Positions 15,207 to 34,912 of a stretch of DNA of 64,000 nucleotides are shown here, piece after piece. Position 1 is the stretch's first letter. Each line of letters opens with the position of its first letter. The position numbers and the translations under genes are program-made. The stretch comes from Robiginitalea sp. SC105 (GTDB taxonomy: Bacteria; Bacteroidota; Bacteroidia; Flavobacteriales; Flavobacteriaceae): NCBI RefSeq assembly GCF_014243345.1, contig NZ_JACLZF010000002.1, forward strand, positions 62,001 to 126,000, in the 5' to 3' direction. The notes below the pieces were generated by a model that ran no database searches, was not told the origin of the DNA, and was given only the letters and a program-made list of their open reading frames with translations.

Positions 15207-15250
15207 CTGACATTGGTCATAGGCTGGGCAGCCCGTTGCGCCTACCTTTA
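15207..15250 (+). promoter_or_regulatory. FNR-like operator and -7 box for the mlaEFD operon
   Basis: Palindrome CTGACattgGTCAT at 15207-15220, centre 15213.5. The -7 box TACCTTTA lies at 15243-15250, its first T exactly 29.5 bp from the centre. Transcription would start near 15255, only 3 nt before the ATG at 15258. The geometry equals class II activation by a Crp/Fnr protein at -41.5. Confidence 0.65.
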
Positions 15251-15257
15251 AGAGGCG

Positions 15258-16040
15258 ATGCGTACAATAGGTTCTATCCGGGTGCAGGTAGTCCAGTTCC
15301 TGGACGAAATTGGCGGTATGGCCGCCTTTGCGGGCCGTTTTTTCCGTGTGGTATTCCAGCCGCCCTATGAATTCCGGGAATTCATCCGCCAGTGTTACCA
15401 GATCGGCAACCGGTCGCTCCTATTGGTGGTGGTCACCGGTTTTATCATCGGGCTGGTCCTTACCCTGCAATCCCGTCCAACCCTCATTGAATTTGGAGCC
15501 CTTTCCTGGATGCCCAACATGGTCGGTATCTCGATTGTCCGTGAAATCGGCCCGGTAATCACCGCCCTGATCTGCGCCGGTCGTATTGCCTCCGGGATCG
15601 GGGCCGAGCTGGGGTCCATGCGGGTCACCGAGCAGATCGACGCCATGGAAGTATCGGGCACCAACCCCTTCAAATTCCTGGTTACCACCCGCATCCTGGC
15701 GACCATCCTGATGCTGCCCCTGCTGGTGCTGTTTGCCGACGCCATCGCCCTTTTCGGGTCCGCGCTGGTGGAGAACATCAAAGGGGCCATGAGCTTCCGC
15801 CTGTATTTCAACACGGTATTCGATGCCCTTTCCTACGGGGATTTGGTGCCAGCCACGGTCAAGTCCTTCTTTTTTGGGTTTGTCATCGGGCTGGTGGGCT
15901 GTTACAAGGGCTATTACTGCAAGAAAGGTACGGCCGGCGTCGGCAAAGCGGCCAACACGGCGGTTGTACTGGCCTCCCTGTTGTTGTTTTTTGTCGATTT
16001 CATGACCGTTTTCATCGCGGATATTTTTTATGACCTCTGA
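15258..16040 (+). CDS. mlaE: MlaE-type ABC transporter permease
   Basis: 260 residues with the MlaE fold: an amphipathic N-terminal helix (VVQFLDEIGG), then five to six hydrophobic segments. The family blocks IGLVLTLQ, VREIGPVITALI.AGR, GAELGSMRVTEQIDAMEV and the C-terminal GYYCKKGTAGVGKA are present. It works with the downstream ATPase and MCE protein to move phospholipid between inner and outer membranes. The next gene starts 3 bp after its stop, so this is a tight operon. It is preceded by an FNR-like promoter and an almost absent leader. Confidence 0.93.
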   Translation: MRTIGSIRVQVVQFLDEIGGMAAFAGRFFRVVFQPPYEFREFIRQCYQIGNRSLLLVVVTGFIIGLVLTLQSRPTLIEFGALSWMPNMVGISIVREIGPVITALICAGRIASGIGAELGSMRVTEQIDAMEVSGTNPFKFLVTTRILATILMLPLLVLFADAIALFGSALVENIKGAMSFRLYFNTVFDALSYGDLVPATVKSFFFGFVIGLVGCYKGYYCKKGTAGVGKAANTAVVLASLLLFFVDFMTVFIADIFYDL

Positions 16041-16043
16041 CCC

Positions 16044-16829
16044 ATGCAAGCAACCAAAACACATAGGGATTCAACAAAACCCCAGGCCCCGGCCGACCGG
16101 GCGGTCATCCGCATTGCCGACCTGAAAAAGTCCTTTGGGGACAATCCGGTCCTAAGGGGTTTCAACCTCACCCTTTTCGAAAGGGAGAATGTGGTGGTGA
16201 TGGGTAAATCCGGTTCGGGCAAATCGGTCATGATCAAATGCCTGGTGGGCCTGATGGCACCGGACAGCGGGTATGTGGAAGTCCTGGGCGAGGAGGTCGG
16301 GACGCTGGGCCGGGAGGAACTCGACAGGCTCCGGGGCGACATCGGTTTCCTGTTCCAGGGGAGTGCCCTGTACGATTCCATGACGGTCCGGGAAAACCTG
16401 GAATTTCCGCTCCGCAGGCACCGGAAGCGGATGGGCCCGGATTCGGACCCGGAGGAACTGGTGCTGGAAGCCCTCGAAAATGTCGGGCTGGCCCATGCCA
16501 TCGATATGATGCCGGCCGACCTGTCCGGAGGGATGAAGCGACGCGTGGCCCTGGCAAGGACATTGATCCTGAAGCCCAAAGTGATCCTCTACGACGAACC
16601 TACCAGTGGACTGGACCCGATCACCTCCAAGGAAATCATCGGGCTGATGCGGCGGATCCAGCAAAAATTCGGGACGGCCTCCCTGATCATTACCCACGAT
16701 GTGGATTGCGCGCGGGTGATATCGGAGCGGATTGTCCTGCTGGTGGACGGGGTGAATTATGCGGAGGGCACCTATGCCGAGTTGGCGGCAAGCAGCGATC
16801 CGAAAGTTGAAGCATTTTTTAAAAAATAA
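16044..16829 (+). CDS. mlaF: MlaF-type ABC transporter ATP-binding protein
   Basis: 261 residues. Walker A GKSGSGKSVM, Q-loop FLFQGSALYDSMTVREN (the F..GALFDS variant typical of MlaF), signature LSGGMKRRVALAR, Walker B VILYDEPTSGLDP and the H-loop His in ITHDV are all intact. It should energise the MlaE permease. The first 20 residues (THRDSTKPQAPADRAV) are a hydrophilic extension; translation from the ATG at 16044 is preferred because it directly follows mlaE. Confidence 0.93.
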   Translation: MQATKTHRDSTKPQAPADRAVIRIADLKKSFGDNPVLRGFNLTLFERENVVVMGKSGSGKSVMIKCLVGLMAPDSGYVEVLGEEVGTLGREELDRLRGDIGFLFQGSALYDSMTVRENLEFPLRRHRKRMGPDSDPEELVLEALENVGLAHAIDMMPADLSGGMKRRVALARTLILKPKVILYDEPTSGLDPITSKEIIGLMRRIQQKFGTASLIITHDVDCARVISERIVLLVDGVNYAEGTYAELAASSDPKVEAFFKK

Positions 16830-16833
16830 GACC

Positions 16834-17805
16834 ATGGGAAAAGCTACCGGAAACAATGTGCGCCTCGGGCTGTTCGTAATCGCCGGCACCGCCCTGCTGC
16901 TCCTGGCCGCATACCTGATCGGCAATGAGCAGAAGATCTTCAGCCGCACCTTTGAAATCAGTACGGTGTTCAAGAATGTCGGGGGGCTGCAGGAAGGGAA
17001 TAACGTGCGCTATTCGGGCATCAATGTGGGCACAGTTCGGGAAATCCGTATGGAAAACGATACCAGCATCCGGGTTTATATGCGGATCGAGTCCGAGATG
17101 CAACGGCATATCAAGGGGGATGCTGTGGCCCTTGTGGGCTCGGACGGCCTGGTGGGCAGCATGCTGGTCAATATCCTGCCCGGGGAAGGCCAGGGGCCGC
17201 CGGTTACCGAAGGCATGGAAATCCCGAGTTTCAGCCGGATCACCACCCAGGATATGTTGTCCACCCTGAATGTAACCAACGAAAATGCCGCCCAGTTGAC
17301 GGCAGACCTGCTTGCGGTAACCCATTCCCTTAAAAACGGGTCCGGCGTCCTGGGGCAACTGCTGAACGACAGTATCCTGGCCGGGGATTTCCGCGAAAGC
17401 CTCGCCAACCTGAAACGGACCACGGCCCGTTCTGCAGCAATGTTTGCCCGCCTCGAGGATTTGATTGCCGGATGGGATACGGACGAAAGCGCTGCCGGGC
17501 TTTTATTCGACAACCCCGATTTTGCCGCGCGCCTGCAACAAACCGCTGCCCGCCTGGACAGTACGGGGCAGGAATTGCACCGCTTTGCCCGGCGCCTGAA
17601 TTCCATGACCGATGCAACGGCGGAGGGCCAGGGGGTTGCAGGCGTCCTGCTGAAGGACACGGTGTCCGCCCGGCACCTGCAAAGCACCCTGATCAGCCTG
17701 GATTCCGCAATGATCAAATTCGACCAGAACATGGAAGCCATGAAACACAACTTTCTGACCCGAAGGTATTTCCGCAAGCTCGAGCGGCAGGAGAAGAAGG
17801 AATAG
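16834..17805 (+). CDS. mlaD: MlaD/MCE-family lipid-binding protein
   Basis: 323 residues starting 4 bp after mlaF. One N-terminal membrane anchor (RLGLFVIAGTALLLLAAYLI) is followed by an MCE domain (FEISTVFKNVGGLQEGNNVR, then SGINVGTV, then DGLVGSMLVNI, residues 35-120). A long helical C-terminus (about 160-310) contains repeated GVLGQLL / GVLLKD motifs, consistent with the tunnel-forming helices of longer MCE proteins. It is expected to form a periplasmic ring on the MlaEF core. A strong hairpin follows. Confidence 0.92.
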   Translation: MGKATGNNVRLGLFVIAGTALLLLAAYLIGNEQKIFSRTFEISTVFKNVGGLQEGNNVRYSGINVGTVREIRMENDTSIRVYMRIESEMQRHIKGDAVALVGSDGLVGSMLVNILPGEGQGPPVTEGMEIPSFSRITTQDMLSTLNVTNENAAQLTADLLAVTHSLKNGSGVLGQLLNDSILAGDFRESLANLKRTTARSAAMFARLEDLIAGWDTDESAAGLLFDNPDFAARLQQTAARLDSTGQELHRFARRLNSMTDATAEGQGVAGVLLKDTVSARHLQSTLISLDSAMIKFDQNMEAMKHNFLTRRYFRKLERQEKKE

Positions 17806-17833
17806 GAGGGGAAACCAGGGGTTGGGCAACTAA

Positions 17834-17863: not shown

Positions 17864-17900
17864 GTGACAAAGGGCTTCCCGAAGGCGAAGCGGACAGATC

Positions 17901-18410
17901 TTACAGGAAGTGCCCTTTATCGTCCATTTTTACGCGGATTTTCTGGTCGCCGTTTTCAAGGACGAGCTTGTAGGTTTTTTCGGCTCCCTTGTTTTGGTTG
18001 TAATGAACCACGTACACGTCTTTGGTGACCGTCCATCCGGGAAAGCGTTCTGCCACGGCCTCCCTGACGGATCTGGGAAGCGCAATGTCCTTAAAACGCT
18101 CAATGGTCCGCAGGATCTTTCCGTCCTTGTCATAGGCGGCCAAAACCTTGCCTTCCGGGATAAAGAACCGGATTTGGTACAGGTCGTAGTCGTCCACGTA
18201 GTACTCGGAATTTTCCAGGTCAAAGGCAGCCACCTTCCGCTCCAACATTTCTACCGGCAGGGCCGCGGGTTCCATGGAGCCCACGTTGTTGAGGTATTTG
18301 TAGTTGGTGGCGTAAACGGTGACTTCGGATAATTGTTCCGTCTTGACGATTTGGGCAATGGCCGGGCTGGTCAACCCGATTAAAATAAGACCTAGTAGCA
18401 GCTTTTTCAT
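17901..18410 (-). CDS. Secreted PepSY-like (DUF2874-type) protein
   Basis: 169 residues with a clear Sec signal (MKKLLLGLILIGLTSPAIAQ). The mature part has the features of periplasmic PepSY-like proteins: GKVLAAYDKDGKILRTIERF, a block rich in aromatic and charged residues (RFPGWTVTKDVYVVHYNQN), and VLENGDQKIRVKMDDKGHF at the end. The function of such proteins is unknown; binding of a secreted partner is usually guessed. The promoter carries an FNR-like site (18491-18504), so it belongs to the putative stress regulon. Confidence 0.7.
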   Translation of the reverse strand: MKKLLLGLILIGLTSPAIAQIVKTEQLSEVTVYATNYKYLNNVGSMEPAALPVEMLERKVAAFDLENSEYYVDDYDLYQIRFFIPEGKVLAAYDKDGKILRTIERFKDIALPRSVREAVAERFPGWTVTKDVYVVHYNQNKGAEKTYKLVLENGDQKIRVKMDDKGHFL

Positions 18411-18460: not shown

Positions 18461-18504
18461 GAAATGTAGCAGTTTCCCCCCGTGGTGGAAATGACCTGAA
18501 TCAG
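18461..18504 (-). promoter_or_regulatory. FNR-like operator and -7 box for the PepSY-like gene
   Basis: Palindrome ATGACctgaATCAG at 18491-18504, centre 18497.5. On the minus strand TACATTTC runs from 18468 to 18461, its first T exactly 29.5 bp away. Predicted start near 18456, 46 nt before the ATG at 18410. Confidence 0.6.
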
Positions 18505-18533: not shown

Positions 18534-18577
18534 ATGACCGGGGTCAGTGCCCGGCAGTTTTCACCAGTGTACCTTAT
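18534..18577 (+). promoter_or_regulatory. FNR-like operator and -7 box for the flavin reductase operon
   Basis: Palindrome ATGACcgggGTCAG at 18534-18547, centre 18540.5. TACCTTAT at 18570-18577 has its first T exactly 29.5 bp away. Start near 18582, so the ATG at 18595 and not the upstream GTG at 18547 is the usable start. The two divergent operators here are 43 bp apart, about four helical turns. Confidence 0.65.
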
Positions 18578-18594: not shown

Positions 18595-19206
18595 ATGTCG
18601 GACGGGAATGTAAAACACATAGAACGCATTGCGACGGAAGCGCCGGTTTGGCAGCGCTTTTTCATGATCGCGCCCCTGGCGGTCATCGGGACCCTTGAGG
18701 GGGAGGGGTATGACCTGGCCCCGAAGCACATGGTTACCCCGATGGGATTTGACAATTATTTTGGTTTTGTGTGTTCCCCTGAGCACGGGACCTACAAAAA
18801 TATTCAGGAGGGAGGGGGCTTTTCAGTGAGCTTCCCAAAACCGGATCAGACCCTGATTGCCGCCCTGAGTGCCTCCCCCCGTCAGGAAGCGCTGTGCAAA
18901 TCGGATCAGGTACTCAGGTTCCTGCCGACGGTTCGTTTGCCTGAAACGGATATCCCATTCCTTTCAGGCTCCTACCTGATGCTGGATTGCGAACACTTCC
19001 GGACCCTGGACGGTTTTGGCCGGAACAGCCTGATCACCGGCAGGATCCGGAACGCCTATGTGGACCGGGATTACCTGCGGATGTCCGAAAGGGACGAACA
19101 ACAGATGCTCAGGGAGCACCCGTTGCTTGCCTATGTTGCTGAAGGCCGGTTCGCACGCGTGGCCGAAACCTATTCTTTTCCATTTCCCAAAGGATTTAAG
19201 AGATGA
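18595..19206 (+). CDS. Flavin reductase-like FMN-binding protein
   Basis: 203 residues from the ATG at 18595, chosen because the mapped promoter excludes the upstream GTG. The N-terminal half reads as the split-barrel flavin reductase family (APLAVIGTLEGEGYDLAPKH, then GFVCSPEHGTYKNIQEGGGF, then SVSFPKPDQ); the C-terminus has the family ITGRI segment. Such proteins bind FMN and reduce flavin or a small substrate with NAD(P)H. The stop overlaps the start of the M20 peptidase by 4 bp, indicating translational coupling. Confidence 0.8.
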   Translation: MSDGNVKHIERIATEAPVWQRFFMIAPLAVIGTLEGEGYDLAPKHMVTPMGFDNYFGFVCSPEHGTYKNIQEGGGFSVSFPKPDQTLIAALSASPRQEALCKSDQVLRFLPTVRLPETDIPFLSGSYLMLDCEHFRTLDGFGRNSLITGRIRNAYVDRDYLRMSERDEQQMLREHPLLAYVAEGRFARVAETYSFPFPKGFKR

Positions 19207-22313: not shown

Positions 22314-22383
22314 ATGACCTGAATCAGTCCTGGGTAGGACTGATCTTTATCATAGGCCATGGAGCGGGCAGGAAATACCTTTA
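22314..22383 (+). promoter_or_regulatory. Double FNR-like operator and -7 box for the usp pair
   Basis: Proximal site CTGATctttATCAT at 22340-22353 (centre 22346.5), exactly 29.5 bp before TACCTTTA at 22376-22383. A second site ATGACctgaATCAG at 22314-22327 lies 26 bp further upstream; its sequence is identical to the site at 18491. Start near 22388, 17 nt before the ATG. Confidence 0.7.
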
Positions 22384-22404: not shown

Positions 22405-23262
22405 ATGAAAAACATCCTGATACCCACCGACTTTTCGAAAAATGCATGGCATGCGATTGAATATGCCCTGCTCTTCTTCAAGGATGAGACCTGTACGTTT
22501 TACCTGTTGCATACGTATACGCCAGCATTCTATCGCATTGATTACCTAAGCGGCGGGCCGGAGATCAGCGGGATCCCGGATGTCGGTGTGGATATTTCCA
22601 TGAGCGGCCTGGAAAAAACCCTGGAAGATATCGAACGGGAATTTCCGAATCCCCGTTACCGCTTTGAACTCGTATCGTCCTTCAATACGCTTACGGACGA
22701 GATCCGCGATATCTCGGAGCGGAAACAGATCGACCTGATCGTGATGGGCACCCAGGGGGCCACCGGCGCCAAACAGGTGTTCCTCGGATCGAACACCGTG
22801 TGGGCGATTCGTAAAGCCCACAGGCCGCTGCTGGCGGTACCCTCTGAAACGACCTACCGTCCGCCCCGGATGGTGCTTTTCCCAAGCGATTACAGGGGCT
22901 ATTACAAAAGGGAGGACCTCCAACCGATGCTCGATATCATCCGAGCCCACGACTCCCGCGTGCTGATTTTCCATATGAAGGAGGAAGCCGGCGGGCTGAC
23001 AGACGCCCAGAAAGACAACCAGCGACACCTGGAGCGATGCATGGAGGAAATAGAGTACGAGATTGTCGAGGAGAAGGGCGGGAACCTGCCCGAGGCAATC
23101 CTGCGGTTCATTGAAGAACACCCGATAGACCTTTTGGTGATGACAAACCGCAGCCATACGTTTTTTGAACGGTTGCTCGTCCGCCAGAACATTGACCAGA
23201 TAGGCTTCCACATAAAAATTCCCTTCCTGGTGGTGCCAGACCACAGCGAACCCGTTAAATAA
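22405..23262 (+). CDS. Tandem-domain universal stress protein
   Basis: 285 residues made of two UspA domains. The first (MKNILIPTDFSKNAWHAIEY to about 150) has the ATP-binding loop GTQGATGAKQVFLGSNT (G-2x-G-9x-G-S). The second (about 152-283, starting MVLFPSDYRGYYKREDL) keeps the fold but lacks the full loop. Usp proteins support survival during growth arrest, hypoxia or energy shortage. The next usp gene starts 9 bp downstream, and the promoter carries two FNR-like sites. Confidence 0.92.
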   Translation: MKNILIPTDFSKNAWHAIEYALLFFKDETCTFYLLHTYTPAFYRIDYLSGGPEISGIPDVGVDISMSGLEKTLEDIEREFPNPRYRFELVSSFNTLTDEIRDISERKQIDLIVMGTQGATGAKQVFLGSNTVWAIRKAHRPLLAVPSETTYRPPRMVLFPSDYRGYYKREDLQPMLDIIRAHDSRVLIFHMKEEAGGLTDAQKDNQRHLERCMEEIEYEIVEEKGGNLPEAILRFIEEHPIDLLVMTNRSHTFFERLLVRQNIDQIGFHIKIPFLVVPDHSEPVK

Positions 23263-25006: not shown

Positions 25007-25050
25007 CCAAATTACACTCCATGGGTGTTCGCTGAAATGATTTGTGTCAT
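25007..25050 (-). promoter_or_regulatory. FNR-like operator and -7 box for the third usp gene
   Basis: Palindrome ATGATttgtGTCAT at 25037-25050, centre 25043.5. The minus-strand box TAATTTGG runs from 25014 to 25007, first T exactly 29.5 bp away. Start near 25002, 15 nt before the ATG at 24987. Confidence 0.65.
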
Positions 25051-25052
25051 GG

Positions 25053-25146
25053 CCATGCCATTTTTGTTCGCTGGCATGGGGAGTTGGGCCGTGGCAAAAG
25101 AATTGGCAACGGGATTTTCATTGCCATGGGTAAACCCTTAAATTTG
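25053..25146 (+). promoter_or_regulatory. pta promoter region with two inverted repeats
   Basis: CCATGCCA-N11-TGGCATGG at 25053-25079 and TGGCAA-N11-TTGCCA at 25104-25126 lie between the FNR-like site and a consensus -7 box TAAATTTG at 25139-25146. Predicted start near 25151, 23 nt before the pta ATG. The same 11 bp spacer suggests a second DNA-binding protein, but the half-sites differ in orientation. Confidence 0.45.
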
Positions 25147-25173
25147 CAGGTATCAAGTACGATCCCACAGACT

Positions 25174-27264
25174 ATGAATAAAGGCATTTACGTTGCCACC
25201 ATCGAGGCCAACAGCGGTAAATCCATCCTATCCCTCGGGTTGATGCGGCTTTTGTTGGGCAAGATGGCCCGGGTGGGCTATTTCCGCCCCATCATCGATG
25301 ATTATCCCGATGGAAAACAGGACAACCACATCGCCACCATCCTCTCTCATTTCAATATTCCCCTGGATTACGGGGAGGCCTATGCCTGTACCCGCAGCCA
25401 GGTGGTCCAAAAAAGCAGCAGGAACCAGGAAGATCAGGTGCTGGACACCATTATCCAGAAATACAAAAACCTCGAAAGCCGCTTCGATTTTATCCTGGTA
25501 GAGGGGACCGATTTTACGGGCGAAGGGGCTATCATCGAATGGGACTTCAATGTGCTCCTGGCCAAAAACCTGGGCATCCCCACGGTGATCCTTTCCAGTG
25601 GGGTCGGGAAGACCCTGGAGGAGTTCGTCAATTCCCTGGTACTGGCCTATGATTCTTTCCGCGACCAGGGGGTGGAGGTCCTGATGGTCGCAGCCAATAA
25701 GATCCAGGCCAAAAACCGGCAACTGGTCCTTGACCAACTGCAGGCCGACCTGCCGGAGCGGGTATTGACCGCAGCCATCCCGATGAACCCGGTCCTGGGC
25801 AACCCCAGTATGCGGGAAATTGTGGACGCCCTGGAGGGGGTCGTGCTGTTCGGGGAAAACCACCTGGACAAGCAGGTGGCGCACTTTGGCGTGGGGGCCA
25901 TGCAGCTGAGGAATTACCTGACCCATCTGGAAGAGGATACCCTGGTCATCACCCCGGGGGACCGGGCCGACATCATCCTGGGCGCCCTGCAGGCGAACCT
26001 TTCGACCAACTACCCATCGGTCTCCGGGATCGTGCTTACGGGGGGGCTGCTGCCCGAGGATACCATCAACCGCCTGATCGAAGGCCTGTCGGAGGTGGTG
26101 CCCATTGTCTCCGTACAGGGGGGTACGTTTTCGGTAACCAACCGGATCGGCTCCATCCAGCCCAAGATCTATTCGGGCAATACGCTCAAGATTGAACAGT
26201 CCCTCAAGGATTTCCGGGCTTTTGTGCCGGAAGACGCCCTGGCAGAGCGCCTGGTCACTTTCCGGGCCGACGGGATCACCCCGAGGATGTTCCAGTATAA
26301 TTTGCTCAGGAAAGCCCAGTCCGACCTCCGGCATATCGTGCTGCCCGAGGGCACGGACGAACGGGTCCTCCGAGCCTCCGTAGAACTGATCAACCACCAT
26401 GCAGTCCGGCTTACCCTCCTGGGGCCGGTAGGGGAGATCCGTGAGAAGGCCAAACAGTTAAAACTGCAACTGCCCGAGGAAATCCAACTTCTGGACCCCC
26501 GCAGTGCCCCCCGGTTTGCCGACTACGCAGAAACCCTGTACGAATTGCGGAAACACAAGAACATGGAACTGACCATGGCCCAGGACCTGATGGCCGACGT
26601 TTCCTACTTCGGCACCATGATGGTTTATAAAGGGGATGCGGACGGCATGGTTTCCGGCGCTGCCCACACCACCCAGCATACCATCCGCCCGGCCCTTCAG
26701 TTCATCAAGACGCGGCCCGGGGTCAACCTGGTTTCCTCCGTCTTTTTCATGTGCCTCCCGAACCGGGTAACGGTTTTCGGGGACTGCGCCATCAACCCGA
26801 ACCCGAGTGCTGCCGACCTGGCTGAAATAGCCATTTCCTCTGCAGATACCACGGCTTCCTTCGGCATTGAACCCCGGGTGGCCATGTTGTCCTATTCTTC
26901 GGGTACTTCCGGTCAGGGGGCCGATGTGGACCGGGTCCGCGAAGCCACCCGCCTGGTCCGGGAACGCCGTCCCGACCTGAAGGTTGAAGGGCCCATTCAA
27001 TACGATGCAGCGGTGGACCTGAAGGTGGGCCGGAGCAAACTGCCCGACTCGGAGGTCGCAGGCCGGGCAACCGTGTTTATCTTCCCCGACCTGAACACGG
27101 GCAACAATACCTACAAGGCAGTACAGCGGGAAACGGGGGCCCTGGCAATCGGCCCGGTACTGCAGGGCCTCAATAAACCGGTAAACGACCTGAGCCGCGG
27201 GTGTACGGAGGACGATATCTTCAACACCGTAGTCATTACGGCCATACAGGCCCAGCAGCATTAA
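25174..27264 (+). CDS. pta: Phosphate acetyltransferase (long, BioD/DRTGG type)
   Basis: 696 residues from the ATG at 25174 (MNKGIYVATIEANSGKS), chosen because the -7 box lies at 25139 and the upstream extension is not family-like. Three parts: an N-terminal BioD-like P-loop domain (EANSGKS, 1-190), a DRTGG domain (about 215-330) and the catalytic PTA_PTB domain (about 375-690; LPEGTDERVLRA, GDADGMVSGA, YSSGTSGQGADVD). It interconverts acetyl-CoA and acetyl phosphate and works with AckA, whose gene starts 15 bp downstream. Acetyl phosphate could also feed response regulators such as the REC-Crp protein encoded 4 kb away. Confidence 0.95.
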   Translation: MNKGIYVATIEANSGKSILSLGLMRLLLGKMARVGYFRPIIDDYPDGKQDNHIATILSHFNIPLDYGEAYACTRSQVVQKSSRNQEDQVLDTIIQKYKNLESRFDFILVEGTDFTGEGAIIEWDFNVLLAKNLGIPTVILSSGVGKTLEEFVNSLVLAYDSFRDQGVEVLMVAANKIQAKNRQLVLDQLQADLPERVLTAAIPMNPVLGNPSMREIVDALEGVVLFGENHLDKQVAHFGVGAMQLRNYLTHLEEDTLVITPGDRADIILGALQANLSTNYPSVSGIVLTGGLLPEDTINRLIEGLSEVVPIVSVQGGTFSVTNRIGSIQPKIYSGNTLKIEQSLKDFRAFVPEDALAERLVTFRADGITPRMFQYNLLRKAQSDLRHIVLPEGTDERVLRASVELINHHAVRLTLLGPVGEIREKAKQLKLQLPEEIQLLDPRSAPRFADYAETLYELRKHKNMELTMAQDLMADVSYFGTMMVYKGDADGMVSGAAHTTQHTIRPALQFIKTRPGVNLVSSVFFMCLPNRVTVFGDCAINPNPSAADLAEIAISSADTTASFGIEPRVAMLSYSSGTSGQGADVDRVREATRLVRERRPDLKVEGPIQYDAAVDLKVGRSKLPDSEVAGRATVFIFPDLNTGNNTYKAVQRETGALAIGPVLQGLNKPVNDLSRGCTEDDIFNTVVITAIQAQQH

Positions 27265-27279
27265 ACCCAGAACCACCCC

Positions 27280-28470
27280 ATGAGCCGCATCATCCTCGTA
27301 CTGAATTCCGGAAGTTCCTCCCTGAAGTTCCAGGTGCTCCGGATGCCGGAGGAAACCCGGATATGCCAGGGGATGGTCGAACGGATCGGCGCCGGGGATG
27401 CACTGTTGAAATACCAGGCCTCCGGGGCAGCTTTCGAACGGGAACTGCAGGCATCGGATCACCGGGGGGCGTTGAGGGAAATCGTCTCGGCACTCCTCGA
27501 TCCGGAAACCGGGGTCCTCGAGGATGCCGGGTCCGTGGCTGCAGTAGGCCACCGGGTGGTACACGGAGGGACCCGGTTCAGCAGTACCACCGTGGTTGAT
27601 TCAAAGGTAAAGAAAGCCATTTTGGAACTTGCCCGCCTGGCCCCCCTCCACAATCCCGCCAACCTGGAGGGCATCCTCCAGGCAGAATCATTCTTCCCCC
27701 GGGCATTGCAGGTGGCTGTTTTCGATACGGCCTTCCACCAGACCATCCCCCTGAAGGCCCGGAAATATGCCCTCCCGGAGGTGCTGTACCGGGAACACGG
27801 GGTGCAGGTATACGGATTTCACGGGACGAGCCATAAATATGTGGCCGGACAACTGGCGCCCCACCTGCCCGCTGATGGCAAACTGATCTGCCTGCACCTG
27901 GGGAGCGGCTGCAGTGCCTCGGCAATCCGGGGAGGCATCAGCATGGACCACAGCCTGGGCTTTACCCCGAGCAATGGCCTGATCATGGGTTCCCGGAGCG
28001 GGGATATCGACCACGGCATCATCTTTTTTCTGGTGGAGAGCCTGGGGTATTCCCTGGAAGAGGTTAAGGAGATGCTGAGCAGGGACAGCGGGCTGAAGGG
28101 CCTCACGGGAAAAACCGATCTGCGGGATATTGAACAGGCCGCGGAGAAAGGGGACGCCGCCTGCCGGCTCGCCCTGGAAATGACCGCATACCGCATACGC
28201 AAATATGTGGGCGCCTATGCGGCTGCCCTGAACGGCCTGGACGGCCTGGCCTTTACGGCCGGGATCGGGGAACACTCCTCCCGTATGCGGGACCTGGTCT
28301 GCCGGGACATGGACTATCTCGGGATCCGCCTGGACCCCTCGCGCAACCAGGACCCGGGCGCGGGCTTACAAGCAGTACACGCAGCCGGTTCCCGCGTAAA
28401 AGTATGGGTGGTGCCCACCGATGAGGAACTCGAAATAGCCCGCCAGACCTACCAGGTGCTCAGCCCCTGA
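27280..28470 (+). CDS. ackA: Acetate kinase
   Basis: 396 residues, the usual length. Family motifs: LNSGSSSLKFQ at the N-terminus, HRVVHGG, FDTAFHQTIP, GFHGTSHKY, HLGSGCSASAIRGG, DHSLGFTPSNGLIMGSRSGD and FTAGIGEHS. It makes ATP and acetate from acetyl phosphate in the cytoplasm; with pta this gives overflow or fermentative ATP. Its position amid usp and FNR-like promoters fits an energy-limitation gene set. Confidence 0.96.
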   Translation: MSRIILVLNSGSSSLKFQVLRMPEETRICQGMVERIGAGDALLKYQASGAAFERELQASDHRGALREIVSALLDPETGVLEDAGSVAAVGHRVVHGGTRFSSTTVVDSKVKKAILELARLAPLHNPANLEGILQAESFFPRALQVAVFDTAFHQTIPLKARKYALPEVLYREHGVQVYGFHGTSHKYVAGQLAPHLPADGKLICLHLGSGCSASAIRGGISMDHSLGFTPSNGLIMGSRSGDIDHGIIFFLVESLGYSLEEVKEMLSRDSGLKGLTGKTDLRDIEQAAEKGDAACRLALEMTAYRIRKYVGAYAAALNGLDGLAFTAGIGEHSSRMRDLVCRDMDYLGIRLDPSRNQDPGAGLQAVHAAGSRVKVWVVPTDEELEIARQTYQVLSP

Positions 28471-28896: not shown

Positions 28897-29664
28897 TCAA
28901 TCCAGTAAATGTTCACTCAGCGTATCCCGCAAAAGGGAACGCGCGCGCTCCAGCAAAGCCTCGATCTCGGCCTCGTCCTGTTTCTTGATCAGGGCGATTT
29001 CCTCGGTGCTGAACAGTTGCAGGGTGGCCAGTTCAAAAACGGAACGGGCATCTGCCGGCATCCCGAAGAGGGTGGCGTCGAGGCGCTGTTCTACCTGATC
29101 CCTGCCGGCGTCCGACTCCATCAGGGCCATCAGGTCTTCATGGGCATCGTCCAGGAAAATGTTCTTCAGGATGTAGTGGTGGTCCCTGTAGGAAATGTCG
29201 TCCAGGTCCTCGAGCATCACCAGGTCCCCGTCCCCGTCCGTGCTGTAGTTCTCCTCCATTTCGGACTGTTCGGCCCGGGAGTAGTCGTCGATATTTTCAT
29301 TGTAGCAGGAACTGAATATTTCCTCCACTTCCATATCCTCCAGTATCTTTTCGGCCCGTTCAAACAGCCAGGAACGGAACATATCCCCGGAAGGGATGTC
29401 ATCGAAATGGTCCCATATCTCGATGATCAACTGGTCGAAAAAATCGTCGGGCCGGTATTTGTTGTGGGATATCACGCCCTTGGAAAGGGCCAGCCTCAGT
29501 GCCCGGGTGATATACCGGTGCACCTCGGGGAGGACCTTCATCAATTCCTCGTTGAAGGCCTTTCGCTCATCGGCCTGGCGGAGATCCCTGAGGTGTTCAA
29601 AACTACTGCTTACCTGCTGCTGGAACTCGGCCAGTCTTTTGTCGTAAACTCGGGTGGGTTTCAT
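28897..29664 (-). CDS. Divergent sigma-70-like protein
   Basis: 255 residues from the ATG at 29664. The N-terminal half (YITRALRLALSKGVISHNKY, then PDDFFDQLIIEIWDHFDDIP) looks like a sigma region 2 helix set. The C-terminal end (SVFELATLQLFSTEEIALI, then EALLERARSLLRDTL) resembles region 4. A long acidic insert (about 115-170, EEIFSSCYNENIDD, EENYSTDGDGDLV) separates them. It may be a real alternative sigma factor or a degenerate relative with another role. Its promoter has an FNR-like box. Confidence 0.55.
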   Translation of the reverse strand: MKPTRVYDKRLAEFQQQVSSSFEHLRDLRQADERKAFNEELMKVLPEVHRYITRALRLALSKGVISHNKYRPDDFFDQLIIEIWDHFDDIPSGDMFRSWLFERAEKILEDMEVEEIFSSCYNENIDDYSRAEQSEMEENYSTDGDGDLVMLEDLDDISYRDHHYILKNIFLDDAHEDLMALMESDAGRDQVEQRLDATLFGMPADARSVFELATLQLFSTEEIALIKKQDEAEIEALLERARSLLRDTLSEHLLD

Positions 29665-29690
29665 GATCTTCCGCTTTAGGATTCTACTCC

Positions 29691-29734
29691 GGAAGGTCCG
29701 CAATACACCGCCCAATTAAAATGATTTTTATCAG
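29691..29734 (-). promoter_or_regulatory. FNR-like operator for the sigma-like gene
   Basis: ATGATttttATCAG at 29721-29734, centre 29727.5. GACCTTCC runs from 29698 to 29691 on the minus strand at the same 29.5 bp spacing; its first base is G instead of T. Start near 29686, 22 nt before the ATG. Confidence 0.5.
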
Positions 29735-29778: not shown

Positions 29779-29822
29779 ATGACGCAGGTCATTTGCGGCA
29801 CTCTGATTCCGCTCTATCTTAC
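29779..29822 (+). promoter_or_regulatory. FNR-like operator and -7 box for the ytxH operon
   Basis: Perfect palindrome arms ATGACgcagGTCAT at 29779-29792, centre 29785.5. TATCTTAC at 29815-29822 has its first T exactly 29.5 bp away. Start near 29827, 31 nt before the ATG. Confidence 0.72.
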
Positions 29823-29857: not shown

Positions 29858-30187
29858 ATGAGAAATGAAAGCGGAGCCATCATGCTGGCCCTCCTGACAG
29901 GGGCTGCGATAGGTGCCGGGGTAGGAATCCTGTACGCCCCGGATGCCGGTTCCAATACCCGGAAAAAAATCAGGGAGAAAGTCGATGAAACCCGACATGA
30001 CCTGGCAGACCGGATCTTACATGCCAAAGATGAGTTGACCCGGACTGCCGAGGAAAAGCGGGTAGCCTTTGAGGACAAGCTGGAGGACCTGCTGAGCCAC
30101 ATGAGCTACAAGGCGGACGATATTATCGTGGGCCTGGAGCACAAGCTCGAGGAACTCCGCAAAAAGAATGCACAACTCCAGAAGTAG
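29858..30187 (+). CDS. YtxH-domain stress protein
   Basis: 109 residues. The N-terminal membrane-associated segment AIMLALLTGAAIGAGVGILY is followed at once by APDAGSNTRKKIREKV, the signature APxSGxxTR/KKI of YtxH proteins. A long amphipathic helix (about 35-108) follows. YtxH proteins are general-stress membrane proteins. It is first in a three-gene operon of small envelope proteins driven by an FNR-like promoter. Confidence 0.88.
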   Translation: MRNESGAIMLALLTGAAIGAGVGILYAPDAGSNTRKKIREKVDETRHDLADRILHAKDELTRTAEEKRVAFEDKLEDLLSHMSYKADDIIVGLEHKLEELRKKNAQLQK

Positions 30188-30760: not shown

Positions 30761-31834
30761 TCAACAGCCTGCCCGGGCCAGTTTTTTCAGGTTTTCCGGG
30801 TCGGAAATGATGATGCTGCGGGCCTTACCCATCCGGATAAGGCCTTCGGTTTTTAATTCGGTCAGCGCCCGGATGGTGGTCTCCGTCGCCGTCCCGACAA
30901 TGCCCGCCAGGTCTTCCCGGGATATTTCGATCCCGGTGTCTGTTTTGGCATCTGTGGGCAACCCTTCCCTTAATTTGATCAGCGCCCTGGCAACACGCTG
31001 TTTGACAGGCCAGTAGGCCATCTGCAGGAGCTGCCGCTGCAGGTCAATCAGGTCGCCGGAGATCAACTCCATGAATTTATGGGCAACCTCCCGGTCGCTG
31101 TCCAGCAGGTGGATGAAGTCCGATTTGGGGATGGGATATACTTCCGCGGGGTCCACGACTGTTGCCGTTTCCAGGTAGGTACCTCCCGGGTTGAGCATGG
31201 AGAGTTGCCCTATGAATTGACCCTCCCGGAATATCCCCGTCACCAGCTCCTTTCCGGCCTCGGTGGATTTATGCGCCTTAATGGTTCCCTTTCGGATATA
31301 AAAGAGGTGGTGGACGCCATCCCCTTCCATAAAGAGATATTCTTTGGGGTTGTATTTCCGGGCGAAATAGGTCCGTTCAATGTGGTCCAGGTTCAGGTAG
31401 GAGGAAGCCTGCTTCATAAACTGCTGCATTCCCTCCATACCCGGATGGAACTTTTTTTGCAAAAAGGCGTGCTTGTATAGTCGCGATTCCACTGCGCCCA
31501 GGAGCTCCGATTCCTCGAAGGGTTTGGTGAGGTAGTCGTCGGCGCCCAGGTTCATCCCTTTGCGGATATCCGATTTCTCGGATTTGGCGGTCAGGAACAC
31601 AAAAGGGGTGCCGGCCAGCTGCGCATGGGACTGCAGGTGTTCCAACACCTGGTATCCATCCATACCCGGCATCATGATGTCGCAGAGGATCAGGTGCGGT
31701 TTGTATTCGAGGGCCAGGCTGATACCGGAGTGCCCATCGGCAGATGTAGCCGTATCGTACCCGGCAAGTTGCAGCAGGTCCGCTGTGTTTTCGCGAACAT
31801 CTTCGTTGTCCTCAATGATCAGGATTCGTTTCAT
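30761..31834 (-). CDS. Response regulator with Crp/Fnr-type output (REC-cNMP fold-HTH)
   Basis: 357 residues. A CheY-like receiver (1-120) has acidic pocket Asp9, phospho-acceptor Asp52 (LCDIMMPG) and Lys104 (YLTKPF). A cyclic-nucleotide-fold domain (about 150-265; FMEGDGVHHLFYIRKGTIKA) and a Crp-type winged helix (about 285-345; SREDLAGIVGTATETTIRAL) follow. In the recognition helix the Glu and Arg of FNR (VETISR) are kept (TETTIR). There is no FNR-type cysteine cluster, so direct oxygen sensing is unlikely. It overlaps the histidine kinase gene by 23 bp. I infer that it binds the ATGAC-N4-GTCAT boxes scattered through 15-35 kb, including the one upstream of its own operon. Confidence 0.9.
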   Translation of the reverse strand: MKRILIIEDNEDVRENTADLLQLAGYDTATSADGHSGISLALEYKPHLILCDIMMPGMDGYQVLEHLQSHAQLAGTPFVFLTAKSEKSDIRKGMNLGADDYLTKPFEESELLGAVESRLYKHAFLQKKFHPGMEGMQQFMKQASSYLNLDHIERTYFARKYNPKEYLFMEGDGVHHLFYIRKGTIKAHKSTEAGKELVTGIFREGQFIGQLSMLNPGGTYLETATVVDPAEVYPIPKSDFIHLLDSDREVAHKFMELISGDLIDLQRQLLQMAYWPVKQRVARALIKLREGLPTDAKTDTGIEISREDLAGIVGTATETTIRALTELKTEGLIRMGKARSIIISDPENLKKLARAGC

Positions 31835-34148
31835 TTTTTTCAGTCTTTAAGGTGCAGGGCAGATGGATCAGGAAGGTGCTTCCGCGGCCCGTTGTACTGG
31901 TGAACTGTATGCGTCCGCCCATCAGTTCCGTATATTGCTTTACAATGTGCAGCCCGAGCCCTGTCCCGGGGATATTTATGGCATTCCTGGCTCTGAAGAA
32001 CCGGTTGAAGAGGTTGGGCTGTTCATCCTCCGGGATACCGATTCCCCGGTCCCTGACCGAGAGCATCAATTCATCGCCTTCCCGGCTTACCCGCAGGTGG
32101 ATCGCACTGTTTTCAGGTGAATACTTTATGGCGTTGGACAGCAGGTTCACCAGGATGTGACGGGTGAGTTTGGGGTCGAGGCGGACATTGAAATCGGCCC
32201 TGTCGCAAACCTGCACGAAATGCTGTCCCACCTTCAGGCTGGGTTCGAGCTCCCCCAGGACCGAACGAAGAAGTTCCAGAAAGTCAAAATCGGATGCCTG
32301 GAAACTGATGTCCCCTTCCTCCAGTTTACCCAGGGAAAGGAAATCGTTGAGGATGACCACCATATTCCGGACGTTGTTTTTGATTTGTTTGATGTACCGT
32401 TCCCGTTTGCCTTCCTTCCCGGGTTCGTTCATCCTGCCCAACAGGATGGCCGAGGAGAGGATGGCACTGAGGGGTGTCCGGAATTCATGGGAAGCCATGG
32501 AAATGAAGCGGGATTTCAGGTCATTGAGTTCCTGTTCGCTGTGGAGTGCGCGCAGCAGGTCGCGCTCTGCCTTTTTCTGTTCCGTGGTGTTGCTGAAAAC
32601 CAGCAGGGCCCAGCGGATGGCGTTATCGAATTCCAGGGGGGTGGAATTCACCACATAGGTATTCGCCCCGTGTTCCATTTCAAAACTCACGTGTGAACCC
32701 AGCAGGGTTTCTGCGACCCGTTCTGAGAGCAGGCGTTTTTGGTCTTCGCCAAATCCGGGGAGCGCATCGATGCCCAGGTTGGCGTATTGCCAGGAAAGCA
32801 GGTCCATTGCACGGAGTTCTTCCCCTTCGAGGTGCACGAAATGGTGTTCCTGGTCAAAAACCATAATCACCCCTTTGGGAAAATTCTTGGCCATGGCCAT
32901 AAATAATGCCTGGCTCGCGAATGCAAGGTTCTCTGCCTCCCGGGTGCTTTCGAACTGCTGCTGCAGGCTTCGGTTGGTCTTCTTCAATTCCTCCACGGTT
33001 TCCAGCACCTGCCGGGTCCGGGCTTCCACATTTTCCTCGAGTTCCCTTGCATACCGCTGTAACTGTTTCTTGCCAGCTTCCAGTTGGTCCCGGTTCCAGC
33101 GGCGTTCCACTGCCAGGGCTGCCAGTTGAAGTGCTTCCCGGATCATCCCCCGGGTGTCCGGGTCCGGTTTCCCCATCCGGTCCCCATACAGGGTACAGGT
33201 CCCCAGCAATTGCCTATCTGGGGAGAGGATGGGGAAGGCCCAGGAGGCCCGGAACCCGAATTGCAGTAACTGCATATCGTTTTCGCTCCGCTGCGGCTCG
33301 CGGGACAGGTCAGGGGTGATAATTTCGCGTTTTTCCGTGGCAGCCCGGTTGCAGGGACAGCTGGTGGCTGCACCAAGCGGAATCCTGTCGAAGGCTTTTT
33401 TCAGGGCTTCGGGCAAGCGGAAAGAAGCCAGTGCACGGAGTTCGTCCCCTCCTTGTGCCTTGAGTGAAATAAGGGCGGCCCGGGATCCCGTATGCGCCAC
33501 CAGCAATTCACAAATCGCCTGCCCCGTTTTGGACAGGGGGGCGTATGCGGCGATCGACTCCAGGATTTTCCGGATGCCATCCTTGTAATCGGCGGCTGCC
33601 ACCTGATCGCTGACATCGTTGAGCACCCCGATAAAATGGGTGATTTTACCCTGGTCATCGGCAATAGGGGTGATTGACAGGTCATTCCAGAAAAGGGTGC
33701 CATCTTTCCGGTAGTTGCGAAGAAGTTCCCGGCAGGCCTCCCCTGTATTGAGCGCCCTGCGGATTCGTTCAAGGCCCGGCTGCTGCCTGTCATCCCCCTG
33801 TAATAACCGGCAGTTCCGTCCCTGGATTTCCCGGGCCGAGTATCCGGTAATTTCGGTAAAGGCACGGTTGCTGTAGATGACCGGTCGATCGGGTAGCAGG
33901 GCGTCCGAGATGACAATTCCGTTGCCGGCTGCCTCCAGTGCCCGGTTTCGCAGGCTGAGTGTTTTTTGGGCAGTGCTGAACTGTGAGTCCTCCGGGGCTT
34001 CTTCCTCTCCGGGTTGGCCTTTACCCAGAGCGGCTTCGTATTTATATGTGTTGCGGGGTCGGACCTGTATCCGGGGGGACGGCAATGGCAGTCCCCCTGC
34101 AGGAATTTCTGCAGGCAGGTCCAGGCGGTATTTTCTCTTCGGGCCCAT
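31812..34148 (-). CDS. LOV-GAF-PAS hybrid sensor histidine kinase
   Basis: 778 residues, cytoplasmic (no membrane helix). Residues about 68-180 form a LOV-type PAS domain with the photoactive-cysteine motif GRNCRLLQG (Cys113) and flavin-contacting Asn145 and Asn155 (NYRKDGTLFWN). The usual Gln of the last strand is Leu176 (FIGVLND instead of FIGVQ.D). GAF follows (about 195-345, with a SCPCN motif), then a coiled coil and a second PAS-like domain (about 420-530). The kinase core has SHEFRTPLS (phospho-His), NLLSNAIKYSPE, DRGIGIP and GTGLGL. Start at 34148 fits the promoter at 34175-34218. Cognate partner: the overlapping REC-Crp gene. Confidence 0.9.
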   Translation of the reverse strand: MGPKRKYRLDLPAEIPAGGLPLPSPRIQVRPRNTYKYEAALGKGQPGEEEAPEDSQFSTAQKTLSLRNRALEAAGNGIVISDALLPDRPVIYSNRAFTEITGYSAREIQGRNCRLLQGDDRQQPGLERIRRALNTGEACRELLRNYRKDGTLFWNDLSITPIADDQGKITHFIGVLNDVSDQVAAADYKDGIRKILESIAAYAPLSKTGQAICELLVAHTGSRAALISLKAQGGDELRALASFRLPEALKKAFDRIPLGAATSCPCNRAATEKREIITPDLSREPQRSENDMQLLQFGFRASWAFPILSPDRQLLGTCTLYGDRMGKPDPDTRGMIREALQLAALAVERRWNRDQLEAGKKQLQRYARELEENVEARTRQVLETVEELKKTNRSLQQQFESTREAENLAFASQALFMAMAKNFPKGVIMVFDQEHHFVHLEGEELRAMDLLSWQYANLGIDALPGFGEDQKRLLSERVAETLLGSHVSFEMEHGANTYVVNSTPLEFDNAIRWALLVFSNTTEQKKAERDLLRALHSEQELNDLKSRFISMASHEFRTPLSAILSSAILLGRMNEPGKEGKRERYIKQIKNNVRNMVVILNDFLSLGKLEEGDISFQASDFDFLELLRSVLGELEPSLKVGQHFVQVCDRADFNVRLDPKLTRHILVNLLSNAIKYSPENSAIHLRVSREGDELMLSVRDRGIGIPEDEQPNLFNRFFRARNAINIPGTGLGLHIVKQYTELMGGRIQFTSTTGRGSTFLIHLPCTLKTEKNETNPDH

Positions 34149-34174
34149 ACGCAGCCCATTTATAAGACTTCTGT

Positions 34175-34218
34175 TAAAGATAGGAACCCGAAGGGCTGAA
34201 ATCCATGACAGTTGTCAT
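34175..34218 (-). promoter_or_regulatory. FNR-like operator and -7 box for the LOV kinase/regulator operon
   Basis: Perfect arms ATGACagttGTCAT at 34205-34218, centre 34211.5. TATCTTTA runs from 34182 to 34175 on the minus strand, first T exactly 29.5 bp away. Start near 34170, 22 nt before the ATG. This implies autoregulation if the operon's own regulator binds here. Confidence 0.72.
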
Positions 34219-34252
34219 GATATACCGCGGGAGGGGTGGGTTAACTAAAAAT

Positions 34253-34285
34253 CTCCTCCCAGCCGGAGTTTACCGGTGGGAGGAG
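34253..34285 (-). terminator. Terminator of hsp20
   Basis: Stem CTCCTCCCA...TGGGAGGAG with an inner CCGG/CCGG and one bulged G. On the minus strand it is followed by ATTTTTAG. It separates hsp20 from the LOV kinase promoter. Confidence 0.8.
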
Positions 34286-34362
34286 AGGTTACCGCGCTCT
34301 CCGGAACGGATTCTTGTGTTTAGCCAATCAATTGGTTTCCGGAGGGGATGCGGTTGAAACTT

Positions 34363-34827
34363 TCAGCCAACTTCAATCACTTTCGGCGGTCTTTTTTTAG
34401 CTTCTTCTCTTTTTTTGAGGTTAAACTTCAGGATGCCGTCGGTGTATTTGGCTTTGATGTCTTCTTCCACTACAGAATCGGGCAGTTGAAGGGCGCGTTC
34501 GAAAGAGGCGTAATTGAATTCACGACGTGAATAATTTTCCTCTTCTTCTTCTTTGGTCATTTCCTTTTTCGCGGAGACATTGAGGAATCCGTCCTCGATG
34601 GTGATTTCGAAGTCTTTTTTGGAGAAGCCGGGGGCGGCCAGTTCAATTTCAAAATGATCGTCGGTCTCTTTGATATTGAGGGCAGGTTCCATGGTTTTTC
34701 CATTCCAGAAATCGGTGTTCATCAACCCGGTATTCCAGGTGCGGCTGTCGAAAAAGTCATCCATGTTGAAGAAGTCCTTGGAAAGCAATTCTCCAAAGGG
34801 CCTTCTTTTAAATTTTACTAAGGTCAT
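34363..34827 (-). CDS. Small heat-shock protein (Hsp20/alpha-crystallin)
   Basis: 154 residues from the ATG at 34827 (MTLVKFKRRPFGELLSKDFF). An alpha-crystallin domain spans about 45-140, with the ELAAPGFSKKDFEITIEDG strand, an A/P-type hinge and the final FNLKKREE. The C-terminal I-x-V anchor is present (PKVIEVG). It acts as an ATP-independent holdase in the cytoplasm. It has its own FNR-like promoter and terminator. Confidence 0.94.
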   Translation of the reverse strand: MTLVKFKRRPFGELLSKDFFNMDDFFDSRTWNTGLMNTDFWNGKTMEPALNIKETDDHFEIELAAPGFSKKDFEITIEDGFLNVSAKKEMTKEEEEENYSRREFNYASFERALQLPDSVVEEDIKAKYTDGILKFNLKKREEAKKRPPKVIEVG

Positions 34828-34868
34828 AAGGCACATATTTAAGGTTACACGTAATTGAATTGATCGCC

Positions 34869-34912
34869 TGAATGTACCAGTAATATCCGGCCTGCAAAAT
34901 GATCCAGGTCAG
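34869..34912 (-). promoter_or_regulatory. FNR-like operator and -7 box for hsp20
   Basis: ATGATccagGTCAG at 34899-34912, centre 34905.5. TACATTCA runs from 34876 to 34869 on the minus strand, first T exactly 29.5 bp away. Start near 34864, 37 nt before the ATG. Confidence 0.65.

What the first reader, a model, noticed from the sequence alone, without database searches (positions are those of the whole stretch)
15207..34912. A local FNR-like regulon with invariant operator-promoter spacing
Directly seen: 5-4-5 palindromes of the form ATGAY-N4-RTCAK at 15207, 18491, 18534, 22340, 25037, 29721, 29779, 34205 and 34899 (first bases). In every case the centre lies exactly 29.5 bp before the first base of a -7 box: TACCTTTA, TACATTTC, TACCTTAT, TACCTTTA, TAATTTGG, GACCTTCC, TATCTTAC, TATCTTTA, TACATTCA. 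The right strand for the adjacent gene is matched each time. With the first T at -12 this is the -41.5 position of class II Crp/Fnr activators (established for E. coli FNR and CRP). Targets: mlaEFD, a PepSY-like gene, the flavin reductase operon, usp pair, third usp, sigma-like gene, ytxH operon, LOV kinase/REC-Crp, hsp20. I see none with correct spacing between 35 and 64 kb. The set reads as one envelope and protein-stress regulon.
Basis: partly seen in the sequence, partly recalled or inferred. Interest (0 to 1): 0.88.

Follow-up and report, generated by a model that had tools for sequence, protein, structure and literature searches.

The report
One DNA switch, two stress regulators
Stress and low-oxygen genes in this Flavobacteriaceae bacterium and its relatives carry the same short DNA switch at one fixed distance from the promoter, and comparison of genomes suggests that either of two different sensor proteins can work it.

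Summary
All nine palindromes are present, each 22 bp from the quoted octamer. Eight of ten strict palindromes in the window have TANNTT at that spacing and none at any other spacing from 0 to 46. Elsewhere in a 1.08-Mb sample of the genome, 12 of 14 intergenic but 2 of 21 genic palindromes have it.

"Local envelope and protein-stress regulon" is too narrow. The unit also precedes ccoNO, hemN, rnf, nosZ, korA, dnaJ and another usp gene: an FNR-type low-oxygen regulon with class II geometry. The island surrounds a LOV kinase and REC-Crp response regulator; an FNR-like protein elsewhere has a near-identical recognition helix.

In relatives the unit persists with only REC-Crp (30 of 76 palindromes) or only FNR-like (11 of 39), hardly with neither (1 of 36). 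Without the regulators' own loci: 28/74 and 8/36. Two regulators apparently read one operator.

New here: in more distant Bacteroidota the operator is often doubled, a perfect copy exactly 22 bp upstream of a degenerate one (26 promoters; 2 at 23 bp; none at other distances 14-39).

Binding, signals and transcription starts are untested.

The parts
15207..15220 (+). operator CTGACATTGGTCAT, box TACCTTTA at 15243-15250, before mlaE (15258-16040 +)
   Evidence: MlaE by Pfam
18491..18504 (-). operator CTGATTCAGGTCAT (minus strand), box TACATTTC at 18461-18468, before the 169-aa ORF 17901-18410 -
   Evidence: no Pfam match, so 'PepSY-like' could not be confirmed
18534..18547 (+). operator ATGACCGGGGTCAG, box TACCTTAT at 18570-18577, before the flavin reductase / M20 peptidase run (a start codon lies at 18595)
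   Evidence: Pfam
22314..22327 (.). palindrome ATGACCTGAATCAG without a box, 26 bp upstream of the next operator
22340..22353 (+). operator CTGATCTTTATCAT, box TACCTTTA at 22376-22383, before two usp genes (22405-23262, 23272-24120)
   Evidence: Usp by Pfam
25037..25050 (-). operator ATGACACAAATCAT (minus strand), box TAATTTGG at 25007-25014, before usp 24127-24987 -
   Evidence: Pfam
29721..29734 (-). palindrome with a non-consensus box GACCTTCC at 29691-29698; doubtful promoter of the minus-strand sigma-region-4-like ORF 28897-29715
   Evidence: the unit is not conserved upstream of its homologues, 1 of 13
29779..29792 (+). operator ATGACGCAGGTCAT, box TATCTTAC at 29815-29822, before ytxH (29858-30187)
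   Evidence: YtxH by Pfam; unit upstream of 18 of 20 ytxH homologues in close loci
34205..34218 (-). operator ATGACAACTGTCAT (minus strand), box TATCTTTA at 34175-34182, before the LOV kinase / REC-Crp operon
34899..34912 (-). operator CTGACCTGGATCAT (minus strand), box TACATTCA at 34869-34876, before hsp20 34363-34836 -
   Evidence: HSP20 by Pfam; unit upstream of 12 of 15 homologues in close loci
7267..7280 (+). relaxed operator TTGACCAAAATCAG, box TAGATTTA at 7303-7310, before the 2008-aa secreted subtilase-like ORF 7429-13455
30761..31834 (-). REC-Crp response regulator, 357 aa; likely reader of the operator
   Evidence: Response_reg, cNMP_binding and HTH_Crp_2 by Pfam; cross-genome test
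31812..34148 (-). LOV-PAS / GAF / HisKA / HATPase_c sensor kinase, 778 aa, motif GRNCRLLQ; Leu where LOV domains normally have Gln
   Evidence: Pfam; residues 66-189 match a solved LOV protein, 7r5n, E 1.4e-36; Leu seen in the printed alignment to 8a3u
25042..28470 (+). pta and ackA (acetate fermentation) inside the island; no box at 22 on their side of the 25037 palindrome
   Evidence: Pfam

Best explanation
The sites are operators of a low-oxygen / energy-stress regulon of FNR type. A Crp/Fnr-fold dimer binds ATGAY-N4-RTCAT-like palindromes centred at -41.5, takes the place of the -33 element and recruits RNA polymerase with the Bacteroidota primary sigma factor at a weak TANNTT -7 box (class II activation). 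In this genome two proteins with nearly the same recognition helix can read it: an FNR-like regulator beside ccoNO, and the REC-Crp response regulator in the window, which is driven by a LOV/PAS/GAF histidine kinase and here may feed back on its own operon. The window island (usp, hsp20, ytxH, mla, flavin reductase, LOV kinase/REC-Crp; pta-ackA lie inside it) is the part gathered round the response regulator. Shown: the geometry, its enrichment over controls, the downstream genes, and its persistence with either regulator but hardly with neither in the genomes sampled. Inferred: binding, activation rather than repression, phosphotransfer, and the signals sensed.
For: Geometry and controls. Downstream genes in the surveyed part of the genome: fused ccoNO, hemN, nosZ behind a cytochrome c, RseC/rnfB, POR/korA, multihaem cytochrome, DnaJ, Usp. 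Three HTH_Crp_2 matches in the genome; REC-Crp and FNR-like share SREDxAxxVGTATExxIRxLxELKxEGL. FNR-like loci of REC-Crp-lacking relatives: 18 of the 19 with a ccoNO homologue in the stretch (20 loci fetched) have the unit upstream. A REC-Crp genome without FNR-like orthologue (G086): 14 of 21 palindromes in a 100-kb island round REC-Crp have the box, including those before a hemN-like radical-SAM gene and ccoNO. Dissociation test: REC-only 30/76, FNR-only 11/39, neither 1/36 (Fisher against neither 2e-5 and 0.003); with the regulators' own loci left out, 28/74 and 8/36 (5e-5 and 0.028). Box position -12 to -5 in F. psychrophilum, and strong induction of its cbb3 oxidase under oxygen limitation: passages of PMC9723704.
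Against: No binding, expression or mapped start sites. The dissociation test rests on 2 + 2 + 4 genomes chosen by me and on part of their sites (G060 30 of 57, G086 46 of 47, G059 27 of 33, G107 12 of 48, neither 36 of 76). G107 alone is not significant (1 of 11 without its regulator locus, p 0.42), nor is G086 outside its island (4 of 25, p 0.15). Raw palindrome counts over 149 genomes separate REC-Crp carriers from others only modestly (median ratio to control about 2.5 against 1.7). Autoregulation is not general: the unit lies within 500 bp of the kinase ORF start in 14 of 33 close loci, 10 of 32 in a narrower stretch. 58 of 93 palindromes in this genome have no box. Several genes behind the unit are not known low-oxygen genes, and 7 of 28 tested had no Pfam match. 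G060 and G086 each keep one further HTH_Crp_2 protein over the cut-off, so another reader is not strictly excluded.
Confidence: 0.8

Rival explanations
1. Only the FNR-like regulator binds. The island is an ordinary FNR regulon, and REC-Crp is one of its targets or reads another sequence (a cascade).
For: The unit is kept at ccoNO in REC-Crp-lacking genomes (18 of 19) and in G059 (9 of 27); the REC-Crp operon itself carries the unit.
Against: Genomes without an FNR-like orthologue but with REC-Crp keep the unit (G060 12/30, G086 18/46), in G086 concentrated round REC-Crp. Recognition helices agree.
Confidence: 0.12
2. Only REC-Crp matters in the island; FNR-like controls respiration genes through subtly different sites.
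For: Density of the unit is high round REC-Crp genes.
Against: Own-genome sites at ccoNO, hemN and nosZ have the same core and spacing. I did not test for a separate motif class.
Confidence: 0.12
3. The sites are repressor operators overlapping the -35 region, not activator sites.
For: Position alone does not tell activation from repression.
Against: Boxes are weak (the final G of TAnnTTTG in 17% of 41) and no -33 element is conserved between operator and box, as expected for activator-dependent promoters; the exact spacing argues for contact with polymerase.
Confidence: 0.07
4. Chance or codon-driven palindromes.
For: 58 of 93 palindromes in this genome have no box; in the continuous sample outside the window 21 of 35 are in coding sequence.
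Against: relatives.
Confidence: 0.01

Closest known systems
FNR / FixK regulons of Alphaproteobacteria (PMC2908626, passages seen)
   Same: The FNR list there holds P-type ATPase, cytochrome oxidase I/II, UspA and oxygen-independent coproporphyrinogen oxidase; the paper notes FNR next to the cbb3 genes and regulators with indistinguishable sites.
   Different: Other phylum and promoter type (TAnnTTTG); outer base mostly A/C instead of T; one of the two inferred readers is a phospho-relay response regulator.
HcpR of delta-proteobacteria, wyTTGACnnnnGTCAArw (PMC1274295, passages seen)
   Same: Inner TGAC-N4-GTCA.
   Different: Outer T; the sites described there are mainly at hcp and frdX.
FixL-FixJ-FixK cascade (recalled; PMC7888657 seen in search listing only)
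   Same: Two-component input and FNR-type input meet at low-oxygen genes.
   Different: Here receiver and Crp DNA-binding domain are one protein and, as inferred, act on the same operator as the FNR-like protein.
LOV histidine kinases and natural LOV domains without the active-site Gln (PMC9098866, abstract and section list seen)
   Same: Cysteine motif kept; such Gln-less LOV proteins still signal.
   Different: Output here is a REC-Crp protein; flavin binding and light response untested.
MalR-like assignment of Flavobacteriales CRP/FNR homologues (PMC8510549, passages seen)
   Same: Crp/Fnr proteins of the same order.
   Different: That paper predicts carbon sensing for its homologues; the targets here point to oxygen and energy state. 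I did not compare the proteins.

Membership tests
Class II Crp/Fnr-activated promoter | operator centred at -41.5, i.e. 29.5 bp before the first base of the -10/-7 box | tested here: met
   box span -12 to -5 from PMC9723704; start sites themselves not mapped here
Class II Crp/Fnr-activated promoter | activation through contacts with polymerase | not testable with these tools
   needs in-vitro transcription
FNR box | TTGAT-N4-ATCAA | tested here: not met
   inner TGAY-N4-RTCA is the search definition. With free outer bases, 181 oriented units in 34 close loci: left T in 22, right A in 2, both in 1. Own 41 units: left C 54%, A 41%, T 5%, right T 85%, but those on C1 were picked with A/C and G/T outside
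FNR-type low-oxygen regulon | cbb3 oxidase, hemN, usp and denitrification genes as targets | tested here: met
   (genes behind the unit; regulation itself not tested)
FNR (iron-sulphur oxygen sensor) | four cysteine ligands | tested here: inconclusive
   four invariant cysteines (own positions 10, 13, 59, 112) in 22 of 22 aligned rows, own plus 21 relatives; the third is not where E. coli FNR has it (recalled); cluster not testable
Two-component response regulator with Crp output | REC plus cNMP-binding plus HTH_Crp, adjacent histidine kinase | tested here: met
   Pfam; kinase homologue found upstream of REC-Crp in 33 of 34 close loci
Two-component response regulator with Crp output | phosphotransfer and phosphorylation-dependent binding | not testable with these tools
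   biochemistry needed
LOV photoreceptor kinase | GRNCRFLQ-type cysteine motif in a LOV-fold PAS domain | tested here: met
   GRNCRLLQ; match to solved LOV proteins. Gln-to-Leu change noted. A GRNC[RK] motif occurs in only 6 of 80 related loci searched, so light is not the general input

The most novel reading that the evidence does not exclude
Bacteroidota share one low-oxygen/energy-stress operator that is read interchangeably by a cysteine-type FNR-like protein and by phospho-relay REC-Crp proteins with variable sensors (PAS, GAF, sometimes LOV), so the input can be swapped without changing the promoters. Between lineages the promoter architecture changed: tandem operators exactly two helical turns apart (-63.5 perfect, -41.5 degenerate) in more distant Bacteroidota, one strong class II operator in Flavobacteriaceae, seen even at the same gene, ccoNO.
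Probability: 0.55. Interest if true: 0.75.

Novelty: new variant of a known kind. Interest (0 to 1): 0.62.

Why it matters
It predicts, promoter by promoter, a low-oxygen regulon for a family whose regulators are little studied, and it offers a natural experiment in regulator replacement: the same promoters with only REC-Crp, only FNR-like, or both. The difference between tandem and single operators at orthologous promoters makes the evolution of class II promoters directly testable. My ten literature searches (open-access PMC library only) showed no paper describing this operator or a REC-Crp regulon in Bacteroidota, which is not proof that none exists.

Tried and rejected
Rejected: that the motif is confined to the window; that it is chance; that LOV light sensing is the general input of REC-Crp (GRNC motif in 6 of 80 related loci; my kinase regular expression in that script was faulty and found one kinase, so one search used blastp instead). 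The window's divergent palindromes 18491/18534 and the 22314/22340 pair (26 bp apart) are not the 22-bp tandem type. The box-independent test uses the same loci and is a check, not an independent sample.

Genes were called by a simple ORF script, which misplaces some (the sites before hsp20 and dnaJ were counted as genic). The groups 'close' (34 loci) and 'far' (46 loci) were set by identity to the window's REC-Crp and record title, not by a formal taxonomy: 'close' includes a Kaistella record (L021) and a Saprospiraceae-labelled MAG (L037), 'far' includes an Oceanihabitans-labelled MAG (L079, 52% identical, probably misplaced; it adds no tandem case) and records labelled only Flavobacteriales. 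The sites for one search were the first listed ones plus those I could still fetch, not a random draw, and for G060, G059 and G107 they included the regulator's own locus; one search repeats the count without those loci. Regulator presence was set at E < 1e-60; G074 and G020 were not checked with PF13545.
Full report
OBSERVATION. The nine palindromes and their octamers are in the sequence as written. A scan of the window finds ten strict palindromes MTGAY-N4-RTCAK; eight have TANNTT exactly 22 bp on, none at any other spacing from 0 to 46. The ninth quoted site (29721) has GACCTTCC instead, and a tenth (22314) has no box. A relaxed site at 7267 also has a box at 22.

CONTROLS. The palindrome occurs 107 times in the 3.58-Mb genome against 9 for the reversed pattern. 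In 1.08 Mb read as continuous stretches, 12 of 14 intergenic palindromes outside the window have the box and 2 of 21 genic ones (Fisher 8e-6); in the window 7 of 9 intergenic and 1 of 1 'genic' (hsp20, under a spurious ORF). Permuting the half-site gives a mean of 0.18 boxes at 22 against 24 for the real one; the two highest permutations (8 and 6) contain the same words and the rest have at most 1. Only the inner spacer of 4 works. Of 107 palindromes, 93 were read and 35 have the box, 4 of them on both sides.

TARGETS. Genes directly downstream of the unit include, besides those in the window, the fused ccoNO, hemN, RseC followed by rnfB, a cytochrome c followed by a fasciclin-domain gene and nosZ, POR/korA, a multihaem cytochrome, dnaJ, usp, a pyridoxamine-oxidase-like gene, baeRF, DoxX and FadL. 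Others have no evident tie to oxygen (for example UPRTase, GCS2, TonB C-terminal, TPR, lipocalin-like and DUF285 proteins), and 7 of the 28 proteins tested had no Pfam match. The window island also holds pta and ackA. Taken together this resembles a low-oxygen and energy-stress regulon, similar to the alphaproteobacterial FNR list (PMC2908626, passages).

REGULATORS. The genome has three HTH_Crp_2 matches: REC-Crp in the window, an FNR-like protein at C1:1100175, and one at C1:481050 whose recognition segment differs. REC-Crp and FNR-like share almost the whole recognition segment, and E..IR is the consensus in own, close, type-2 and far REC-Crp groups and in three FNR-like proteins. By sequence the kinase upstream of REC-Crp is a LOV/GAF histidine kinase.

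RELATIVES. In 80 loci round REC-Crp homologues, spacing 22 has 157 hits among 464 oriented palindromes; other spacings from 0 to 60 have 1-15, except 44 with 21. Of the 157, 149 lie in the 34 close loci and 8 in the 46 far loci. In 20 loci round the second REC-Crp subfamily within the family, 85 of 210 oriented sites. In 20 FNR-like loci of genomes without REC-Crp, 18 of the 19 ccoNO genes found have the unit. ytxH homologues have it in 18 of 20 and hsp20 in 12 of 15 cases in close loci; usp homologues of the uspA1 type in 28 of 62 in type-2 loci; the sigma-region-4-like gene in 1 of 13, against site 29721; the neighbouring hyp146 in 0 of 13.

WHICH REGULATOR. Of 149 family genomes, 74 have REC-Crp at E < 1e-60 and 95 (counted by eye from the listing) an FNR-like orthologue. 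Raw palindrome counts differ only modestly. Reading the box at individual sites is sharper: REC-Crp only, G060 12 of 30 and G086 18 of 46; FNR-like only, G059 9 of 27 and G107 2 of 12; neither, 1 of 36 over four genomes, where about 0.6 is expected from other spacings. Fisher against 'neither': 2e-5 and 0.003. These samples include the regulator's own locus for G060, G059 and G107. Without those loci the counts are G060 10 of 28, G059 7 of 25, G107 1 of 11; pooled 28 of 74 and 8 of 36 (5e-5 and 0.028); G107 alone is not significant. In G086, 14 of 21 palindromes in the 100 kb round REC-Crp have the box, against 4 of 25 outside; its ccoNO and a hemN-like radical-SAM gene are among the targets although no FNR-like orthologue was found. 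I infer that both proteins read the same operator.

GEOMETRY AND MECHANISM. In 41 units only the operator and the box are conserved; nothing like a -33 element is seen between them, and the final G of the box is rare. In F. psychrophilum the box spans -12 to -5 (PMC9723704, passage), which puts the operator centre at -41.5. Class II activation is the natural reading; it is not shown.

TANDEM ARCHITECTURE ELSEWHERE. The far group is 46 REC-Crp loci, by record title mainly Cytophagales and Saprospiraceae types with some other Bacteroidota (exceptions are listed under limits). Here a perfect core lies exactly 22 bp upstream of a degenerate core (up to two mismatches) that itself sits 22 bp before TANNTT: 26 cases at 22 bp, 2 at 23, none at other distances from 14 to 39; the 34 close loci have 1 case at 22. 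Without requiring a box, counting from each perfect core, 51 neighbours are 22 bp away and 9 are 23 away; the mean for other distances, which includes the 9, is 0.72. Of ten downstream proteins tested, six are Usp, one ccoNO, two cytochrome c and one has no Pfam match. At ccoNO itself, 4 of 8 far loci show a perfect distal core 22 bp above the proximal position (one of them with three mismatches in the proximal copy), none shows a single unit, and 4 of 8 show neither; 18 of 19 FNR-only and 2 of 2 type-2 flavobacterial loci show the single unit. Several far loci are near relatives, so 26 is not 26 independent events. Type-2 loci, all from family genomes, have 7 neighbours at 22 bp beside 85 single-unit hits, although their REC-Crp is as distant from the window protein as the far group; so architecture seems to follow the lineage rather than the regulator subfamily. 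The deep branches of the tree are weakly supported.

VERDICT. Filed as a new variant of a known kind.

Noticed in passing
L048-L095 (without L051, L054): Tandem operators 22 bp apart, perfect distal and degenerate proximal, before usp, ccoNO and cytochrome c genes in more distant Bacteroidota.
   Followed up: partly
L177:1030-1734 and L179-L198, L211: FNR-like protein with four invariant cysteines (own positions 10, 13, 59, 112) in 22 of 22 rows, a spacing unlike E. coli FNR as I recall it; possible variant iron-sulphur oxygen sensor.
   Followed up: partly
window 31812-34148: LOV domain keeps the photoactive Cys but has Leu in place of the active-site Gln; Gln-less LOV proteins can still signal (PMC9098866 abstract).
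   Followed up: partly
L251-L255 (G086:C1:970001-1070000): Island with seven usp homologues, ccoNO, P-type ATPase, hemN-like gene, kinase and REC-Crp; 14 of 21 palindromes have the box.
   Followed up: partly
window 7429-13455: 2008-aa ORF with subtilase, SprB repeat and type IX secretion tail domains, preceded by a relaxed unit at 7267.
   Followed up: no
L012:1571-2773 and L163:18745 onward: Two proteins with DUF285 and InlB-type repeats lie behind the unit; unexpected members of a low-oxygen regulon.
   Followed up: no
window 22314-22353: Two palindromes 26 bp apart before the usp pair, only the proximal one with a box.
   Followed up: no
window 25037-25050: The usp operator overlaps the called TTG start of pta; pta/ackA probably starts further in, and the palindrome has no box on that side.
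   Followed up: no
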